From positions 79,663-143,662 of the forward strand of contig JALKBU010000013.1 in NCBI GenBank assembly GCA_023091735.1: a DNA stretch of 64,000 nucleotides, given 5' to 3'. Each line of letters begins with the position of its first letter. Positions within the stretch are counted from its first letter, which is position 1. The notes under the pieces were generated by a model. That model searched no databases. It was not told the origin of the DNA and worked only from the letters and a program-made list of their open reading frames with translations. The position numbers and the translations under genes are program-made. Source of the stretch: Trichomonas tenax. Its lineage: Eukaryota > Parabasalia > Trichomonadida > Trichomonadidae. This document shows, piece after piece, positions 9,686 to 35,869 of the stretch.

Positions 9686-10549
9686 CTATTCACCTTCTTT
9701 CTTATTTTCCTCTTCTTTTTCAACTTCGAAATTATATTCAAAATCTAGTGGGAAGTATAAATGCCTCATTCTGTTATACACAGCGACATCACGTCTTTCG
9801 AACACAACAAATATGATTCTGTCTGTTTTCTCACGATTTTCTGGAATTTCCAAGAATTTTCGAACTGTTTCTAAAGCAACTGGAGTTGCATGTTCAATAG
9901 GATATCCGTAAATACCAGTTGATATACAACAAAATCCGATTGATCTTATTTTTTCGCCATCAATACATTGAAGAGTTGTTTCATAAGCTTCACGAAGCTT
10001 TTCTTCATCTTCACCGATCGGCCCAACTGTGTGTATGCAGTATTTTGCTGGTAAATTATATCCAAGTGTAACAGAACATTTTCCAGTTGGCGTATAACCA
10101 ATTTTGTAGCATTCTTCGGCCATTTCATCACCAGCAGCATCGTGAAGTATACCACAGATGCCACCACCTGGTACTAAGTGAGCGTTTGCTGCGTTAATAA
10201 CAGCGTCACACTCTAATTTTGATGAATCTCCTCTCATCCAGAATGAAACTTTCTCGTTTATCTCTGTGTTGGCTTCGTGTAATGGTTCAAACTTCTTTAT
10301 CGTCTGATCTTTAAGTAATTCCGGACCTTCTTTCGCCCATGTCGGTAATTTCTCGAGAGTCATTATTGTCGGATTTGCTGTTGACTGCTTTTCCTTTTCT
10401 GGGCATTCAGGGATTCTCAATTCCCATGGTTCCTTCAATTCTTCGTAATTATACTCTTCTTCGAAGTCCTCTTCAGCATATTCCTCTTCATACTCAGATA
10501 CTTCGATCTTTTGTTCTTCTTCATGATGAATTTCTTCTTTATTTTCCAT
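9686..10549 (-). CDS. Macro-domain protein, likely ADP-ribose binding/hydrolase
   Basis: The protein is 287 residues when started at the ATG at 10549 (MENKEEIHHEEEQ). An in-frame ATG at 10585 would add 12 residues, but an initiator-like TCACTTTT lies between the two, so 10549 is preferred. Residues 10-60 are very acidic. The macro domain spans about residues 95-260. It includes AVINAANAHLVPGGGICGILHDAAG, the Asn- and Gly-rich ADP-ribose loop typical of MacroD-type hydrolases, then CYKIGYTPTGKCSVTLGYNLP, YCIHTVGP and CCISTGIYGYP. These motifs match the family that removes mono-ADP-ribose or O-acetyl-ADP-ribose. Activity itself is inferred. Confidence 0.92.
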   Translation of the reverse strand: MENKEEIHHEEEQKIEVSEYEEEYAEEDFEEEYNYEELKEPWELRIPECPEKEKQSTANPTIMTLEKLPTWAKEGPELLKDQTIKKFEPLHEANTEINEKVSFWMRGDSSKLECDAVINAANAHLVPGGGICGILHDAAGDEMAEECYKIGYTPTGKCSVTLGYNLPAKYCIHTVGPIGEDEEKLREAYETTLQCIDGEKIRSIGFCCISTGIYGYPIEHATPVALETVRKFLEIPENREKTDRIIFVVFERRDVAVYNRMRHLYFPLDFEYNFEVEKEEENKKEGE

Positions 10550-10552
10550 TCT

Positions 10553-10560
10553 AAAAGTGA
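10553..10560 (-). promoter_or_regulatory. Initiator-like element TCACTTTT of the macro-domain gene
   Basis: The minus strand reads TCACTTTT with the A of TCA at 10558, 9 nt before the ATG at 10549. It matches the Trichomonas Inr pattern TCA(+1)Y(T/A) and supports the shorter start. Confidence 0.5.
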
Positions 10561-10735
10561 ATGAGGAAGTAAATTTACACGACAATTTTATCTCAATTTT
10601 AAGAATTTACGTGGCATATTTATGATTATGGTAATTTCTTCAACCCTCAATGGTTGTATAGATAGTTTATGATGTAGCTAAGAGTTTCGTGAAGAGAAAT
10701 CTAATAGAAAGTAACACTTTATTAATAAAAACTAA

Positions 10736-12046
10736 TCAGTAAGCACCTAAGAGGGCTGTACTATTAAGCATATCTGACTCTGTTGATTTGCCATTCCTTC
10801 TGCAGAATATAAAAACAACCAAAATGATTGCTAATATAACGGTAATAACAATGGCAATTATTACAAAGATCCAGGTCATGTTTGTGCCATAGAAGTCTGG
10901 TGGTGAAATTTGATCAATAATTGCACCGAGAGTCCAACTAGAAGAGATTCCATTAATATTTTCAGTACGTAAGAAGTTTATGTCAGTACCAAATTTGTAC
11001 CCATTGTATATCAAATGGTATTGAAGTACTCCGTTCAAACAATAATAAGTTCTAAATGAATCGTCTTTTGCAATTGCGTCCATTTCTTCTTTTGTAAACG
11101 AGCAAATGTGTTTTGCTGCTTCGAGCGCTTGTTCGTATGTAGCATTTATCGATATATTTGCGAAAGTAGCGTAATTTGAAAATCCGCCCAATCCATAGAA
11201 TTGATTTATTTTCGTAGAACGACTAGGAATCGACGCTTTGGTGACTTTTGGGAGTAAATTTGCTTTAACTGCAGCTGAACACTGCTCAAAATTCGAGGAT
11301 CCTAAAGCAGGAAGTCCATCGATGTAAACTAGATATCCTTTGTTCAAGCAGGGGAAATCTTCAGGCTGACTTTGTTCTTTTACGAATGTTTTTCCGATTG
11401 CATTGAAATATTCAACGATTCCTAAACCTAAAAACGAATGAACGTAAACGTGATGTTTGTTGTCGTGATATTTGAAGGTTCTATATTTAGGTGATTTATC
11501 TCTGTTATCTGTTTCTTGAGCGATTTGTACAGATGCACCTCCTAATTCTGTAATTCCGACGGAAGCAGGTGTGGTAAAATTGCTCGCGAGACTATTTACT
11601 GACAGCCAAGCAAAATAAGCCTCATCTTCACCAGTAATAACGCGAACATTCGAATCTACAAATCTAAAATCTGTCGTAGAACGAAGTTGTTTTAGAGTTT
11701 CTTGGATGATTCTGTCCTGTTCGGACTGAGGTAAAAGTCTCATACCAGCAGTTGCGTATAAAGTAAATTTAGAAGCGCGAATTTCGTCATATGAAATTCT
11801 CTCTTTTACGAATCTTTTAATATTTTGCACTAAAGATGGAATAATCGAAGTATTGTGTTCAGCGTCTGCAAGTTTTATTGGGAATTTCTCTGAATAGGTG
11901 GGAAATTCGTAACAAGGACGAACATTTGGCCACTTTTGGCTCGAATCCCAGCTATATATGTAAATTCTACTTCCTGTACTTCCGCAGTCAATACTTACTC
12001 CGTACGACATCAATGCGGAAACACCAGAAATGAAGAATTCGAGCAT
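10736..12046 (-). CDS. GDA1/CD39-family nucleoside triphosphate diphosphohydrolase (apyrase)
   Basis: The enzyme is predicted to hydrolyse extracellular or lumenal NTP/NDP. Started at the ATG at 12046 it has 436 residues and a hydrophobic N-terminus usable as a signal peptide or anchor. An upstream in-frame ATG at 12127 would add a lysine-rich leader and is less likely. Apyrase conserved regions are clear: SIDCGSTGSRIYIYSW (ACR1, about 18-33), YATAGMRLLP (ACR2, about 97-106), GEDEAYFAWLSVN (ACR3, about 139-151) and ITELGGASVQIA (ACR4, about 165-176). A C-terminal transmembrane helix (WIFVIIAIVITVILAIILVV) and a short cytoplasmic tail follow. In parasitic protists such enzymes take part in purine salvage and lower host ATP; that role is inferred. 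Confidence 0.93.
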   Translation of the reverse strand: MLEFFISGVSALMSYGVSIDCGSTGSRIYIYSWDSSQKWPNVRPCYEFPTYSEKFPIKLADAEHNTSIIPSLVQNIKRFVKERISYDEIRASKFTLYATAGMRLLPQSEQDRIIQETLKQLRSTTDFRFVDSNVRVITGEDEAYFAWLSVNSLASNFTTPASVGITELGGASVQIAQETDNRDKSPKYRTFKYHDNKHHVYVHSFLGLGIVEYFNAIGKTFVKEQSQPEDFPCLNKGYLVYIDGLPALGSSNFEQCSAAVKANLLPKVTKASIPSRSTKINQFYGLGGFSNYATFANISINATYEQALEAAKHICSFTKEEMDAIAKDDSFRTYYCLNGVLQYHLIYNGYKFGTDINFLRTENINGISSSWTLGAIIDQISPPDFYGTNMTWIFVIIAIVITVILAIILVVFIFCRRNGKSTESDMLNSTALLGAY

Positions 12047-12789
12047 ATTTTTTTGATAACCGATCTTATTGATTTTCCAAATTGTGATTTTATTTTTTAT
12101 TTGATTTTTGGATAGGAATTTCCACATATATTCGATCTTGCTGTTGAAAATTGAAAAATAATCAGAGAATTGTTCAATTACAACATATTTTTCGCCAATA
12201 ATTTGGATTCATATTAACAACACTCAATGCTATCTATGTCTCGATTATTGAGGAAATTTCAAAATCAAAATAGAAAAAAAAAATAAATCTAAATTTGTGT
12301 AATTTTTTTAAGTTTACTTTGAAATTTTAAAACTTTAAAAATCTAAATTTTGGACATTGCTTTATAATTGAAATGACTTCTTATTTACACTAATCTGGAA
12401 AATGAAACTTCAATTTTCATATAAAAAATCTTGGATATTGTGATTTAACTTATGGCATAGCATAAAATATAACAAACAATGCATTGTAGCAATATAACAT
12501 AAAACAATTTAGCTAAAACACATTAAAAAAGTTTGATGTGTCAATATTCATGATTAAAACTAAGATTCAGCTTTAATTAACGGGTACATATGCAAATATC
12601 TCATATTTATTATCGAGTAACGAGAGATTTTAACCTCGTTTCGCCTTTTGAAATTTCATGCAATTATAAATTATAGGATTCACTGATCAAATTGTTCAGA
12701 TTCGTCATCAATGGCACAGAGAAACTCATGATGCTGTTCAAAATATTCATATTAATAAATCAGCCTTGAATTCGAATCAATTCAAACAG

Positions 12790-27318: not shown

Positions 27319-28296
27319 ATGAGTTTCAACAATGCTTGCGAACTTATTACGCAATTCCAAGCGTTAATTCACAACAATTACGATGTAGAACAGTACCTTT
27401 TAGGCAGAGAAAACATTGATCCATTAACCAGTCTTCTTTGTTGGTTATTGAACCTGGAAATATTGCAATTTGGTAATCCTTTGAAATTTTCGCTCAAAAT
27501 TAAAATGATAAAGGACAAATTCAACAAAGAATATAGCAATAACATTATTGGCCACGGAAATTTACCAGATATCGAAATTGAAACATTTAATACAGAATTA
27601 CATCAAATTCTTGAAAATTGGGATTTGGTAGAATCTCTTTCTAACATTGATTCATCAATTTTCGAAGAATCGGCACGAAAAATCGTTATTTTCGCGTGCA
27701 GAAGATATAATATTCTTTTTAGAAAAGGATTTTTGACAGCTTTCTTAAGTATTTACTCTATAGTTTATCCAATTGGATTCTTAGCAGAAGACACTCCAAA
27801 TGATTTAACAGAAGCAATAACTTATTATTTATTTGTTGAAATCGTACGCTTAGTCAATATCGTTGTTAACGAGGTGGATAGCGATTCCTTAACTAAGTCT
27901 GTTTTACGCTTCGCAAGGCAGAAAAATATCAAAGAAATATACAATTATCTACAAATAGAGAATATCACATATGCATTGTTATTTAATGACTTCAGTAAAT
28001 TCAATCCAACTGATTTCATCCTTTTATGGAATCAAATTTTAATCAGACCCAATTTTTCACGAGAATATTTGATAAACCTTATTTCTGTCATTATTCAGCA
28101 ATGCTCAAACTATGAGACATTGCTTTCATGGCCAACACGTTATGGTACATCATCAACATTTCAATTAACAGACGGCATTGAAAAAGTTGTTACATATAGA
28201 ATGAAGAGGAGATCAAGAGCCACCAGACACTTCACAATGCTAGCAATGACTATTATTGGAATATATTCATTTGTCAGAAATTATTATTATGAATAA
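27319..28296 (+). CDS. Putative tail-anchored helical protein, 325 residues
   Basis: The frame is intact and has a good initiator 12 nt upstream. The body is all-helical. The stretch LLFNDFSKFNPTDFILLWNQIL (about residues 215-236) faintly resembles the late helices of TBC/Rab-GAP domains (LPF..vl.LWD.il). I do not see the catalytic Arg and Gln fingers and do not call it a GAP. A basic stretch (RMKRRSRATR) precedes a C-terminal hydrophobic segment (HFTMLAMTIIGIYSFV) with a very short tail, which fits a tail-anchored membrane protein. The function is unknown. Confidence 0.78.
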   Translation: MSFNNACELITQFQALIHNNYDVEQYLLGRENIDPLTSLLCWLLNLEILQFGNPLKFSLKIKMIKDKFNKEYSNNIIGHGNLPDIEIETFNTELHQILENWDLVESLSNIDSSIFEESARKIVIFACRRYNILFRKGFLTAFLSIYSIVYPIGFLAEDTPNDLTEAITYYLFVEIVRLVNIVVNEVDSDSLTKSVLRFARQKNIKEIYNYLQIENITYALLFNDFSKFNPTDFILLWNQILIRPNFSREYLINLISVIIQQCSNYETLLSWPTRYGTSSTFQLTDGIEKVVTYRMKRRSRATRHFTMLAMTIIGIYSFVRNYYYE

Positions 28297-29927: not shown

Positions 29928-30962
29928 TCAAAACAATGGCTTTGGTGCTTTTCCATGGCTGATGCCTAGTGACCCTATAAGCCGTTTCTTTGGCTTAACA
30001 TATATTTTGGACTTGAGATATTGCAAAATGAAAATGATATATGTCACAATCATATACATTGGATATGCTGCGCAGACAGTGAGATAAGATGCTCTGAACA
30101 ATTTCCTGATGAGTGAGTCATCCCACCATGAATATTTGATTGCGAGAGTCTTATCAATGAAGAACAATGTGATCGTCATTAGTGTGACAGGAATGAGAAT
30201 TTCTGGAAGATAATATGCTGTTATAAATGCTGAAATCAGCACAACGATGTATATTTTGAGGCGATCTATGTGATTGACAAGAATATGCATCAGAAATGAT
30301 ACATCTCCGATGTTGTTTTGGAATGCAACCATCTTCGTATTTATTAAATCAATCGAGTCTTTGCCTTCTTGAAGTGTGACACTGATGTTCTCTATAGCTT
30401 TTTCTAGACTTTGAGATGACTCATTGAACTCTATTGTTAAGTTTTCGATGACTGCAGCGGATTCAACAGTCTTCTTGAATAAAGTTAAAAGTTGTTCAGA
30501 AGTTCTTGCATTGAACGCTTCACCGTGTGCGAAATAACAAAGGTTTGTAATGTGATGGTCAAAAGTCAAGTAAACGCTGTATGTTGATTGAGTCATTTTT
30601 GATGTATCTAAATCATAAGGAAATTCGTGTAGACGACGTGATATTTTGTAGAAACACTGTGTAAAACGAAGAGATAGGTTCTTTCTAAGTTGTTCATTCT
30701 GTTTTTGTTCGATTGTGTTGCAATTTACTTTCATTTCTGATACAGTATCTGAATAACAATCTGATTTAGAGACATCGATAGTTTCTATAAGACTTGCTAT
30801 TGGAATTACAGCCGGATATTTGCTCTTTATAGAATCAAAATCGAATAATTCTGTTACTTTCTTTCCAGCACTTATTTGTTCAGACAAAGCCTTAGGATTG
30901 AACTCTTTTAGTACATCTACAGACTTTGTATGAGGCAAAAACAAACCTATACCTAAAAACAT
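29928..30962 (-). CDS. KAR5: Candidate KAR5/GEX1/Brambleberry-type nuclear fusion protein
   Basis: The protein has 344 residues with a short hydrophobic N-terminus that could be a signal peptide. Residues 69-142 carry a cysteine-containing domain. It runs DCYSDTVSEMKVNC (Cys69, Cys81), then NLSLRFTQCFYKISRR (Cys103) and YLTFDHHITNLCYFAHGEAF (Cys142). This order and these words match the conserved N-terminal domain of KAR5/GEX1 proteins (DC...NC, LAL.FT.C, .T....H..N.C.F). A coiled-coil-like region (about 155-225) and three hydrophobic segments (about 236-252, 255-270 and 292-315) follow, also as in that family. KAR5/GEX1 proteins act in the nuclear envelope during karyogamy. A sexual role here is inference from the family. 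Confidence 0.6.
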   Translation of the reverse strand: MFLGIGLFLPHTKSVDVLKEFNPKALSEQISAGKKVTELFDFDSIKSKYPAVIPIASLIETIDVSKSDCYSDTVSEMKVNCNTIEQKQNEQLRKNLSLRFTQCFYKISRRLHEFPYDLDTSKMTQSTYSVYLTFDHHITNLCYFAHGEAFNARTSEQLLTLFKKTVESAAVIENLTIEFNESSQSLEKAIENISVTLQEGKDSIDLINTKMVAFQNNIGDVSFLMHILVNHIDRLKIYIVVLISAFITAYYLPEILIPVTLMTITLFFIDKTLAIKYSWWDDSLIRKLFRASYLTVCAAYPMYMIVTYIIFILQYLKSKIYVKPKKRLIGSLGISHGKAPKPLF

Positions 30963-31665: not shown

Positions 31666-32394
31666 TTAATTAGTATTTGTGGTTGTCGTCGTCGAAGACT
31701 TGTCTGTAACATTGCTTGTACTGAAGGACTGAGAATTTAATTCATCGCCAAGCTTTGCTACATGATATAAGAATATTGTTAAAAACCTTTTCAACTCCGC
31801 ATGATCATGACATTGAAATAGTAAATCAGAGCCCTTTTGCTTTGTTGCCTTTACAGCCATCTCGAAGCAAGCGCCCTGTCGCGTGTCAAACCGAACTGGG
31901 CGGATATAAACAACATCCGAAAATTTATATAACGTAGATTCTGTCTGAGATTTATTTGTTTTGAATCCTATAGGCGAAAGATGACACTCTACATTACGCC
32001 CGGCAAAGAAGCCGAGATTTTTATCTTTGAATGATGATTCGAATGTTGTTACTGGTAATTCTGTTGACAATACAGTATTCCATGCTTCTTTTCCTTTAGT
32101 GAGTGCCTCGTAAAAATCTAGTATTTCGAATCTATTGTTCGTTGTTATAACAATTTGCCATTCGCCAATCGGACCACCTGTAGTTATTACTAACGAGTTA
32201 ATGGGAAGCGATTCTTTGGGAGTTCCAGGACGAAATGTAACATAACCGAGATGAATAGTGATTAATGGTGGTTCTACCGGCCTCATAGATATTTCAAGCC
32301 AGTATTCGTTGACAGTAACCCACCGCAGTGTGGGTTTCTGCTTCGATTTCTTTAAGTCTGTAGGGGTATTCATGTACCATCCAACCTGAAACAT
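31666..32394 (-). CDS. Putative PH-like domain protein
   Basis: From the first in-frame ATG (32394) the protein has 242 residues. It begins MFQVGWYMNTPTDLKKSKQKP, followed by TLRWVTVNEYWLEI, the opening pattern of a PH domain (G-W ... RW..v). The region has alternating strands and the helix-like stretch NRFEILDFYEALTKGKEAW. A second strand-rich half ends with a helix (DHAELKRFLTIFLYHVAKL) that could close another PH-like fold. The C-terminus is Ser/Thr-rich. Lipid binding is inferred only. GACATGTAAA, the reverse of the TTTACATGTC motif, lies just upstream of the start. Confidence 0.65.
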   Translation of the reverse strand: MFQVGWYMNTPTDLKKSKQKPTLRWVTVNEYWLEISMRPVEPPLITIHLGYVTFRPGTPKESLPINSLVITTGGPIGEWQIVITTNNRFEILDFYEALTKGKEAWNTVLSTELPVTTFESSFKDKNLGFFAGRNVECHLSPIGFKTNKSQTESTLYKFSDVVYIRPVRFDTRQGACFEMAVKATKQKGSDLLFQCHDHAELKRFLTIFLYHVAKLGDELNSQSFSTSNVTDKSSTTTTTNTN

Positions 32395-34891: not shown

Positions 34892-35869
34892 TTAAGATGA
34901 AGATGAGAAAGAGCTTCCTGAGCTAGAACTCTTGGATTCTTTCTTCTTCTTCTTGCAGCAGCAGCAGCAACACAAGATGATCAAAAGGATGATGATAAGG
35001 ACGACGAAGACAGCAGCTGTGATGTAGCCCCAGACTGGAATGTCAAATGGACCAACAACTGTTGCAAAATTAACAATGGCGTCCTGATTCTTGAGAGCAC
35101 CAATGAAAGCCTTAGCGTATGATGGCTGAGCATCCATCTTCCACTTGATGCTTGCTTTAGCTTCACCTGCATCAGATTTATTGGATGCTGGTTCAACAAT
35201 AATATGGAATGGATCATCATAATTTTCAAATGAGCCCTCTTTAGCTGTTGAGCCATCTGAAAATAAACCACCTGCAGAAATGTTACCTGTGTTTCCGGAA
35301 TATTTAACGGTGGTATTTGTGCCAAATGGAGTTAAGAGCATTTTAACAATCTTTCCCTTATTGCTGCTATCAATGTTGTAACTAATTGGCCACGAGAAGC
35401 TTCCAATAGAAGAATAGTAGTTTCTCACTGATAATCCTGATATTGTCTCGAAAGATGGCATTGCAACTGTGAGCAAAACATGCGTATCGGAACTTCCTGT
35501 GTTGTCAATTCTGACAATTGATGGTTTCTTTGGTGCAAGAACGTCAGAGTTAGCAACTGTAGAAAGCTCGGACTTTGTTGTCACACCAACAAAGAATGTG
35601 GATTTTTCTGGTTTTTTATAACTGTCTCCATCTGGGAAAGCAACAGTAATTTTCAAGTTTTCACCGAGAATGATGGCAGACTGAATTGCAAAGCACTTGA
35701 AATCCTTACTCTTGATTTCGAACTTGGCTGAATATCCTTCATAAAGAGATGAAAAATGTTGTACTGAAGTGCATCCATCAATTGGAGGACTGTCAGCAAG
35801 TTTAAGAGGATCTGCAAACAAAGCTGGGTTTGGACCGAGTATACTTAAAGCGAGAAGTGTAATTAACAT
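34892..35869 (-). CDS. Type I surface protein with Cys-rich juxtamembrane tail
   Basis: The protein has 325 residues. The signal peptide is MLITLLALSILGPNPALFA. A beta-rich, Ser/Thr-rich ectodomain of about 250 residues has several N-x-S/T sites. One transmembrane helix follows (VWGYITAAVFVVLIIILLII). It is directly followed by a run of cysteines and lysines (LCCCCCCKKKKK) and a Ser-rich end. The Cys/Lys run is typical of palmitoylated juxtamembrane segments. Such single-pass proteins with short basic tails are common on trichomonad surfaces. No ligand-binding domain is recognised. Confidence 0.85.
   Translation of the reverse strand: MLITLLALSILGPNPALFADPLKLADSPPIDGCTSVQHFSSLYEGYSAKFEIKSKDFKCFAIQSAIILGENLKITVAFPDGDSYKKPEKSTFFVGVTTKSELSTVANSDVLAPKKPSIVRIDNTGSSDTHVLLTVAMPSFETISGLSVRNYYSSIGSFSWPISYNIDSSNKGKIVKMLLTPFGTNTTVKYSGNTGNISAGGLFSDGSTAKEGSFENYDDPFHIIVEPASNKSDAGEAKASIKWKMDAQPSYAKAFIGALKNQDAIVNFATVVGPFDIPVWGYITAAVFVVLIIILLIILCCCCCCKKKKKESKSSSSGSSFSSSS

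What the first reader, a model, noticed from the sequence alone, without database searches (positions are those of the whole stretch)
29928..30962. Candidate KAR5/GEX1 karyogamy protein in a trichomonad
The ordered cysteine domain (DC..., NC, LSLRFTQC, ITNLCYF), the coiled coil and three C-terminal membrane segments match the ancient KAR5/GEX1/Brambleberry nuclear-envelope fusion family. Trichomonads are regarded as having no observed sexual cycle, so an intact karyogamy gene beside housekeeping genes would be meaningful. The motif match is what I see; a role in nuclear fusion is inference from the family.
Basis: partly seen in the sequence, partly recalled or inferred. Interest (0 to 1): 0.88.

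Follow-up and report, generated by a model that had tools for sequence, protein, structure and literature searches.

The report
Divergent nuclear-fusion-like proteins in a trichomonad
A single-celled trichomonad, not known to have sex, carries a gene resembling the protein that fuses nuclei at fertilisation in yeast and plants, with two of its six signature cysteines missing and three sister copies, which gives a concrete handle for testing whether these parasites fuse nuclei.

Summary
The ORF is real: 29928-30962(-), 344 aa, intact. The same genome holds three more relatives (43, 23, 17 % identical; E 2.6e-69, 1.8e-9, 0.0018). All four keep four cysteines in one order, the first pair 12 residues apart as in yeast Kar5, and C-terminal hydrophobic segments. 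Searching the genome with that GEX1's cysteine domain returns one place, the paralogue L003, E 3.7e-4; the window gene itself was not returned. So the KAR5/GEX1 lead holds as homology of the cysteine domain. It is not a textbook member: the family is defined by six cysteines and the middle pair is absent in all four. Pfam Tht1 does not match, nor does it match the typed GEX1. Spo11-type, Hop2, Mnd1, Dmc1-type and SUN matches are present; HAP2 was not found, inconclusively. Gex1 in metamonads is in print in general terms (PMC8516963). A karyogamy role is inference. Verdict: new variant of a known kind.

The parts
29928..30962 (-). Whole coding sequence, 344 aa, single open frame, intact
   Evidence: found again in the whole genome at 100 %
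30921..30962 (-). Short hydrophobic N-terminus (residues 1-14), possible signal peptide
   Evidence: Sequence; the four proteins start with a short hydrophobic stretch, but none passed the 19-residue hydropathy threshold
30498..30779 (-). Cysteine domain, residues 62-155, with C69 (30756-30758), C81 (30720-30722), C103 (30654-30656) and C142 (30537-30539)
30258..30509 (-). Long helical stretch (residues about 152-235), possible coiled coil
   Evidence: AlphaFold2 helix 152-251, low confidence; the profile's weak PDB matches lie mostly in this region
30192..30260 (-). First membrane segment, residues about 235-257
   Evidence: Hydropathy peak 239-257
30144..30200 (-). Second membrane segment, residues about 255-273, following the invariant P253
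   Evidence: Hydropathy peak 255-273; P253 invariant
30015..30086 (-). Third membrane segment, residues about 293-316
   Evidence: Hydropathy peak 294-312

Best explanation
The gene encodes a divergent homologue of the GEX1/KAR5/Brambleberry nuclear-envelope proteins, one of four in this trichomonad genome. Predicted at low confidence: a long helix between them. Inferred: the protein enters the ER and nuclear envelope, the cysteine domain lies in the perinuclear space and is held by two disulphides instead of three, and the helix and membrane segments bring or hold the envelope membranes together so that two nuclei can fuse. It would act rarely, in a cryptic sexual or parasexual step or in stress-induced multinucleate cells.
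For: Paralogues in the same genome. Invariant C69, C81, C103 and C142. First pair 12 apart in all four and in yeast Kar5 C56/C68. Profile of the four against typed AtGEX1: 34.4 bits, E 1.3e-9; best of 2000 shuffles and 67 other window stretches 6.3 bits. Cysteine-domain alignments: 0 of 3000 shuffles reach the observed score for each of the four; with cysteines kept in place 0, 0, 0 (query, L002, L003) and 1 (L004) of 3000. Whole-genome search with the typed GEX1 domain: one place, L003's gene, E 3.7e-4. hhalign probability 90.7. Second codon positions differ least in 6 of 6 gene pairs, and third positions most in 5 of 6, e.g. 0.328 against 0.617 for query and L002, which fits selection on the protein. 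Meiotic-recombination families and a SUN-domain match are in the genome; yeast Kar5 localisation near the spindle pole body depends on Mps3, listed as a SUN protein.
Against: Only four of the six defining cysteines. No Pfam Tht1 match. With cysteines masked the similarity to GEX1 is clear only for L003 (0 of 3000); query 31, L002 233, L004 910 of 3000. The genome search with the GEX1 domain returned L003 only, not the window gene, L002 or L004 (one candidate scored). The C-terminal region does not align above chance (query 158 of 2000). No HAP2 found (no control rang). Signal peptide unproven. No expression or localisation data.
Confidence: 0.55

Rival explanations
1. It is a true GEX1/KAR5 homologue but has been repurposed: four diverged copies without the middle cysteine pair serve another nuclear-envelope or ER membrane task, such as remodelling in closed mitosis or in cysts and multinucleate stress forms, with no nuclear fusion.
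For: Four copies that have diverged to 17-43 % identity with the query. Middle cysteine pair absent in 4 of 4, while in yeast the conserved cysteines are essential for fusion and C105A and C116A (and also C91A) lose spindle-pole enrichment. HAP2 not found (inconclusive). Multinucleate T. foetus cells are reported under alkaline stress.
Against: Meiotic-recombination families are kept, and little linkage disequilibrium is cited for T. vaginalis populations. Loss of a cysteine pair can be neutral if those two pair with each other.
Confidence: 0.3
2. It is an unrelated trichomonad membrane protein family with a chance resemblance in cysteine spacing.
For: No Pfam Tht1 match. Low-confidence model with no significant PDB fold match. 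A four-cysteine pattern plus weak similarity, measured against one remembered sequence.
Against: Profile, genome-wide and hhalign comparisons support relatedness. L003 remains similar with cysteines masked (0 of 3000). The order of parts agrees with the printed plan.
Confidence: 0.12
3. It is a relic of an ancestral sexual cycle, no longer functional.
For: [quoted passage not shown]
Against: Four open frames at deep divergence with the cysteines kept and second codon positions constrained.
Confidence: 0.03

Closest known systems
Plant and protist GEX1
   Different: Four of six cysteines; 291-344 aa against 590 aa as typed for AtGEX1; shorter stretch between cysteine domain and membrane segments; C-terminal region not alignable above chance
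Yeast Kar5 / S. pombe Tht1 (PF04163)
   Same: First two cysteines 12 apart; the third follows after 23 in Kar5 (C68-C91) and 18-22 here; lumenal cysteine domain, coiled coils and C-terminal membrane segments in Kar5
   Different: Kar5 has C105 and C116 between the third and last cysteine, two membrane segments and two coiled coils; no Pfam match here
Zebrafish Brambleberry
   Same: Named in print as of the same family, sharing the cysteine domain (passages of PMC7586128 and PMC4291462)
   Different: No Brambleberry sequence was compared here; printed as having two membrane segments

Membership tests
GEX1/KAR5/Brambleberry | Cysteine domain with six conserved cysteines | tested here: not met
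   Four of six in all four proteins; the two middle ones (Kar5 C105, C116; typed AtGEX1 C121, C130) have no counterpart
GEX1/KAR5/Brambleberry | Sequence relatedness of the cysteine domain | tested here: met
   Profile 34.4 bits against at most 6.3 for decoys; whole-genome E 3.7e-4 for L003 only; hhalign 90.7.
GEX1/KAR5/Brambleberry | N-terminal signal sequence | tested here: inconclusive
   Short hydrophobic start in all four; none passed the hydropathy threshold
GEX1/KAR5/Brambleberry | Coiled coil after the cysteine domain | tested here: inconclusive
   Long helix in low-confidence models; no coiled-coil predictor was run
GEX1/KAR5/Brambleberry | Two or three C-terminal membrane segments | tested here: met
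   Hydropathy: in the query a double segment (232-275) and another (293-316); in the paralogues two hydrophobic blocks (229-274 and 291-314; 209-249 and 252-281; 206-252 and 249-280), the exact number of crossings not settled
Pfam Tht1 (PF04163) | Score above the family cut-off | tested here: not met
   No match for the query, three paralogues, the cut-out cysteine domains of query and L003 or the genome (no control rang). The typed AtGEX1 has no match either
GEX1/KAR5/Brambleberry | Nuclear-envelope localisation, reproductive expression, nuclear-fusion defect on loss | not testable with these tools
   No expression, imaging or genetics available here

The most novel reading that the evidence does not exclude
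Trichomonads keep a compact, two-disulphide GEX1 machine of four members in two subfamilies (query with L002; L003 with L004) that act as partners in nuclear-envelope fusion during a hidden sexual or parasexual cycle; if they work, the middle cysteine pair that is essential in yeast is dispensable for the family's mechanism.
Probability: 0.3. Interest if true: 0.75.

Novelty: new variant of a known kind. Interest (0 to 1): 0.52.

Why it matters
Whether trichomonads have sex is open: meiotic genes and recombination signals are in print, but PMC8516963 says that no sexual process has been directly observed in metamonads. A nuclear-envelope fusion candidate, in four copies, gives a direct cytological marker and a removal target. 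The natural loss of one cysteine pair would also show which part of the cysteine domain the fusion mechanism can do without.

Tried and rejected
Pfam gave only sub-threshold, unrelated hits for the query and paralogues. PDB by sequence: one match, E 1.6; with the profile 57 weak matches, mostly in the helical region, best E 0.006. Fold search: 263 matches at E <= 10, none at E <= 0.001, as expected for a model of mean pLDDT 65. Relatives in the viral and prokaryote collections: none confirmed (118 pattern matches). The membrane region as extra evidence of homology was rejected: 158, 415, 820 and 1499 of 2000 shuffles (query, L002, L003, L004) reached the observed score, and 184, 626, 878 and 1644 of 2000 when hydrophobic positions were kept. 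A fifth copy at L009 (E 0.02) was not accepted: none of the four ORFs listed there looks like the family; L010 and L011 (E 0.12, 0.23) were not opened further. HAP2: no match, but no control genome rang either, so absence is not shown. Upstream stretches were printed and not interpreted. Rfam over the window: no match. Genome-size passages for T. foetus and Histomonas did not identify the species.

What I saw of papers: passages found by term in PMC8516963, PMC7423146, PMC4291462, PMC7586128, PMC9324357, PMC10609895, PMC2488364, PMC5748591, PMC9198077, PMC13353863, PMC13332039, PMC12428144, PMC8529796, PMC12188315 and PMC4413856 (15 papers); search listings only for all others. Paper searches that ran. 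Of 6 papers holding GEX1 and Trichomonas I looked into 4; of 3 holding Kar5 and Trichomonas vaginalis into 1. Supplements could not be read. Ning et al. 2013 and Speijer et al. 2015 are not held; what they list for Trichomonas is unknown to me.

Full report
What is there. The ORF at 29928-30962 on the minus strand is intact and codes for 344 aa. The window lies in a 53.4 Mb assembly of 1528 contigs. One uL3 copy of this genome matches PDB chain 5xy3_B over 414 residues with 917.6 bits, against 466.7 for the next sequence, and by my own count 11 of 414 residues differ. That 5xy3 is the T. vaginalis large ribosomal subunit is recalled, not from a call. On that basis the organism is a close relative of T. 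vaginalis; the species is not identified.

A family of four. The protein finds three further places in its genome: L002 (43 % identity, E 2.6e-69), L003 (23 %, 1.8e-9) and L004 (17 %, 0.0018; that match ran over one TAA, which is the end of the ORF or beyond it, the ORF itself being open). Starting from L003's protein the same four come back, plus three weak places with E 0.02 to 0.23 that I did not accept. All four are single ORFs: 344, 335, 298 and 291 aa. They lie in different contigs beside other genes, for example a protein-kinase-like ORF next to L004 and a long dynein-like ORF near L003 (names from my reading of the translations). The closest pairs are query with L002 (43 %) and L003 with L004 (25 %). 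Second codon positions differ least in 6 of 6 pairs and third positions most in 5 of 6; in L002 against L004 the first position is marginally higher than the third, 0.668 against 0.661. This fits selection on the protein; no formal test was run.

Shape. Invariant across the four are, among others, C69, C81, C103, P115, C142, Y143 and P253 (query numbering). The first two cysteines are 12 residues apart in 4 of 4; the next gap is 22, 18, 18 and 18, and the last 39, 43, 43 and 43 (positions). Hydropathy gives strong segments only in the C-terminal third. AlphaFold2 with only the four sequences gives mean pLDDT 65.2 for the query and 68.5 for L003, helical throughout apart from loops, with one helix of about 100 residues leading into the membrane region. 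These models are weak and coordinates were not read.

Relation to GEX1/KAR5. From PMC4291462 (passages): Kar5 has a signal peptide, a lumenal domain with six essential cysteines named C56, C68, C91, C105, C116 and C141, coiled coils and two membrane segments, and all six cysteines are said to be conserved in every orthologue. From PMC7586128 and PMC9324357 (passages): plant GEX1 has the same plan with three membrane segments and six cysteines. The four proteins here match the first, second, third and last cysteine and lack the two between. It agrees with the printed plan in its six clustered cysteines and N-terminal hydrophobic stretch, but only one C-terminal segment passed my threshold where three are printed. 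It was typed after I had seen the paralogues, so bias in recall cannot be excluded.

Results against it. BLASTP in a two-sequence space, with composition correction and masking off, gave E 1e-6 for the query, 0.001 for L002 and 1e-8 for L003; the L004 result was cut from the output. In the cysteine domain 0 of 3000 shuffles reached the observed score for each of the four; with cysteines held in place 0, 0, 0 and 1; with cysteines masked 31 (query), 233 (L002), 0 (L003) and 910 (L004) of 3000. So similarity beyond the cysteines is clear for L003, modest for the query and not shown for L002 and L004. A profile of the four scores typed GEX1 at 34.4 bits, E 1.3e-9, in a set of that sequence, 2000 shuffles of it and 68 window stretches; apart from the query's own frame (403.4 bits) the best other score is 6.3 bits. 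Searching the whole genome with the typed GEX1 cysteine domain gives one place, L003's gene, E 3.7e-4; one candidate was scored, and the window gene, L002 and L004 were not returned. hhalign aligns query residues 62-155 with probability 90.7 and E 1.2e-6. The C-terminal regions do not align above chance. Homology is therefore claimed for the cysteine domain only; the window gene is tied to it through its paralogues as much as by itself.

Pfam. PF04163 (Tht1) does not match the query, the three paralogues or the genome. The typed GEX1 does not match it either, so the negative says little. The rule that a failed defining feature bars filing as a member applies to the six cysteines; I therefore call it a divergent variant and not a member.

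Setting. In the same genome: Mnd1 family, 2 places over cut-off; TP6A_N, the domain of Spo11 and of topoisomerase VI A, 1 place (it rang in four archaeal controls, so Spo11 is not proved by this match alone); Hop2/TBPIP, 2; the Dmc1 model, 3 over the cut-off of 447.7 bits at 495.6, 455.6 and 449.1 and 2 below it, so Rad51 is not separated from Dmc1 for the weaker ones; SUN domain, 1 at 30.7 bits. HAP2: none, with no control genome ringing. A meiotic toolkit in T. vaginalis has been in print since 2008 (PMC2488364, passages), and little linkage disequilibrium in its populations is cited in PMC4413856 (passages).

What is known and what may be new. PMC8516963 states that its surveys confirm key meiotic proteins in metamonads including Hap2 and Gex1, and lists T. 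vaginalis among its genomes (passages); which species carried Gex1 is not in the passages I saw and supplements could not be read. So a GEX1 in a trichomonad may already be tabulated. In the searches I saw no description of a four-cysteine form or a four-gene family, but I opened only some of the papers listed. The statement that sex was never directly observed in metamonads also sits beside Cleveland's reports of fertilisation in Trichonympha and other flagellates, reviewed in PMC5748591 (passages).

How it may work. Inferred: lumenal cysteine domain, two disulphides, a helix and membrane segments joining the envelope membranes at nuclear fusion. In yeast the missing positions matter for enrichment at the spindle pole body (C105A and C116A, as also C91A, which is kept here), which predicts that the trichomonad proteins either dock differently or have changed task. 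Multinucleate T. foetus cells under alkaline stress (PMC13332039, passages) are one place to look.

Noticed in passing
G000 C884:54549-54728 and C1005:34739-34918; C201:10870-11046 and C1461:68124-68300 (outside the window): Mnd1 and Hop2/TBPIP domains each occur at two places over the curated cut-off, while PMC2488364 lists one Mnd1 and two Hop2 for T. vaginalis.
   Followed up: no
G000 C333:113647-113949 (outside the window): A single SUN-domain match of 30.7 bits, a possible nuclear-envelope partner.
   Followed up: no
window 34892-35869 (-): 325-aa ORF with a hydrophobic stretch near the C-terminus followed by a run of cysteines, lysines and serines; only a sub-threshold Pfam hit.
   Followed up: no
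window 9686-12127 (-): A macro-domain protein next to a GDA1/CD39 nucleoside phosphatase.
   Followed up: no
window 27319-28296 (+) and 31666-32394 (-): Two ORFs of 325 and 242 aa near the gene with no Pfam match at E 0.001.
   Followed up: no
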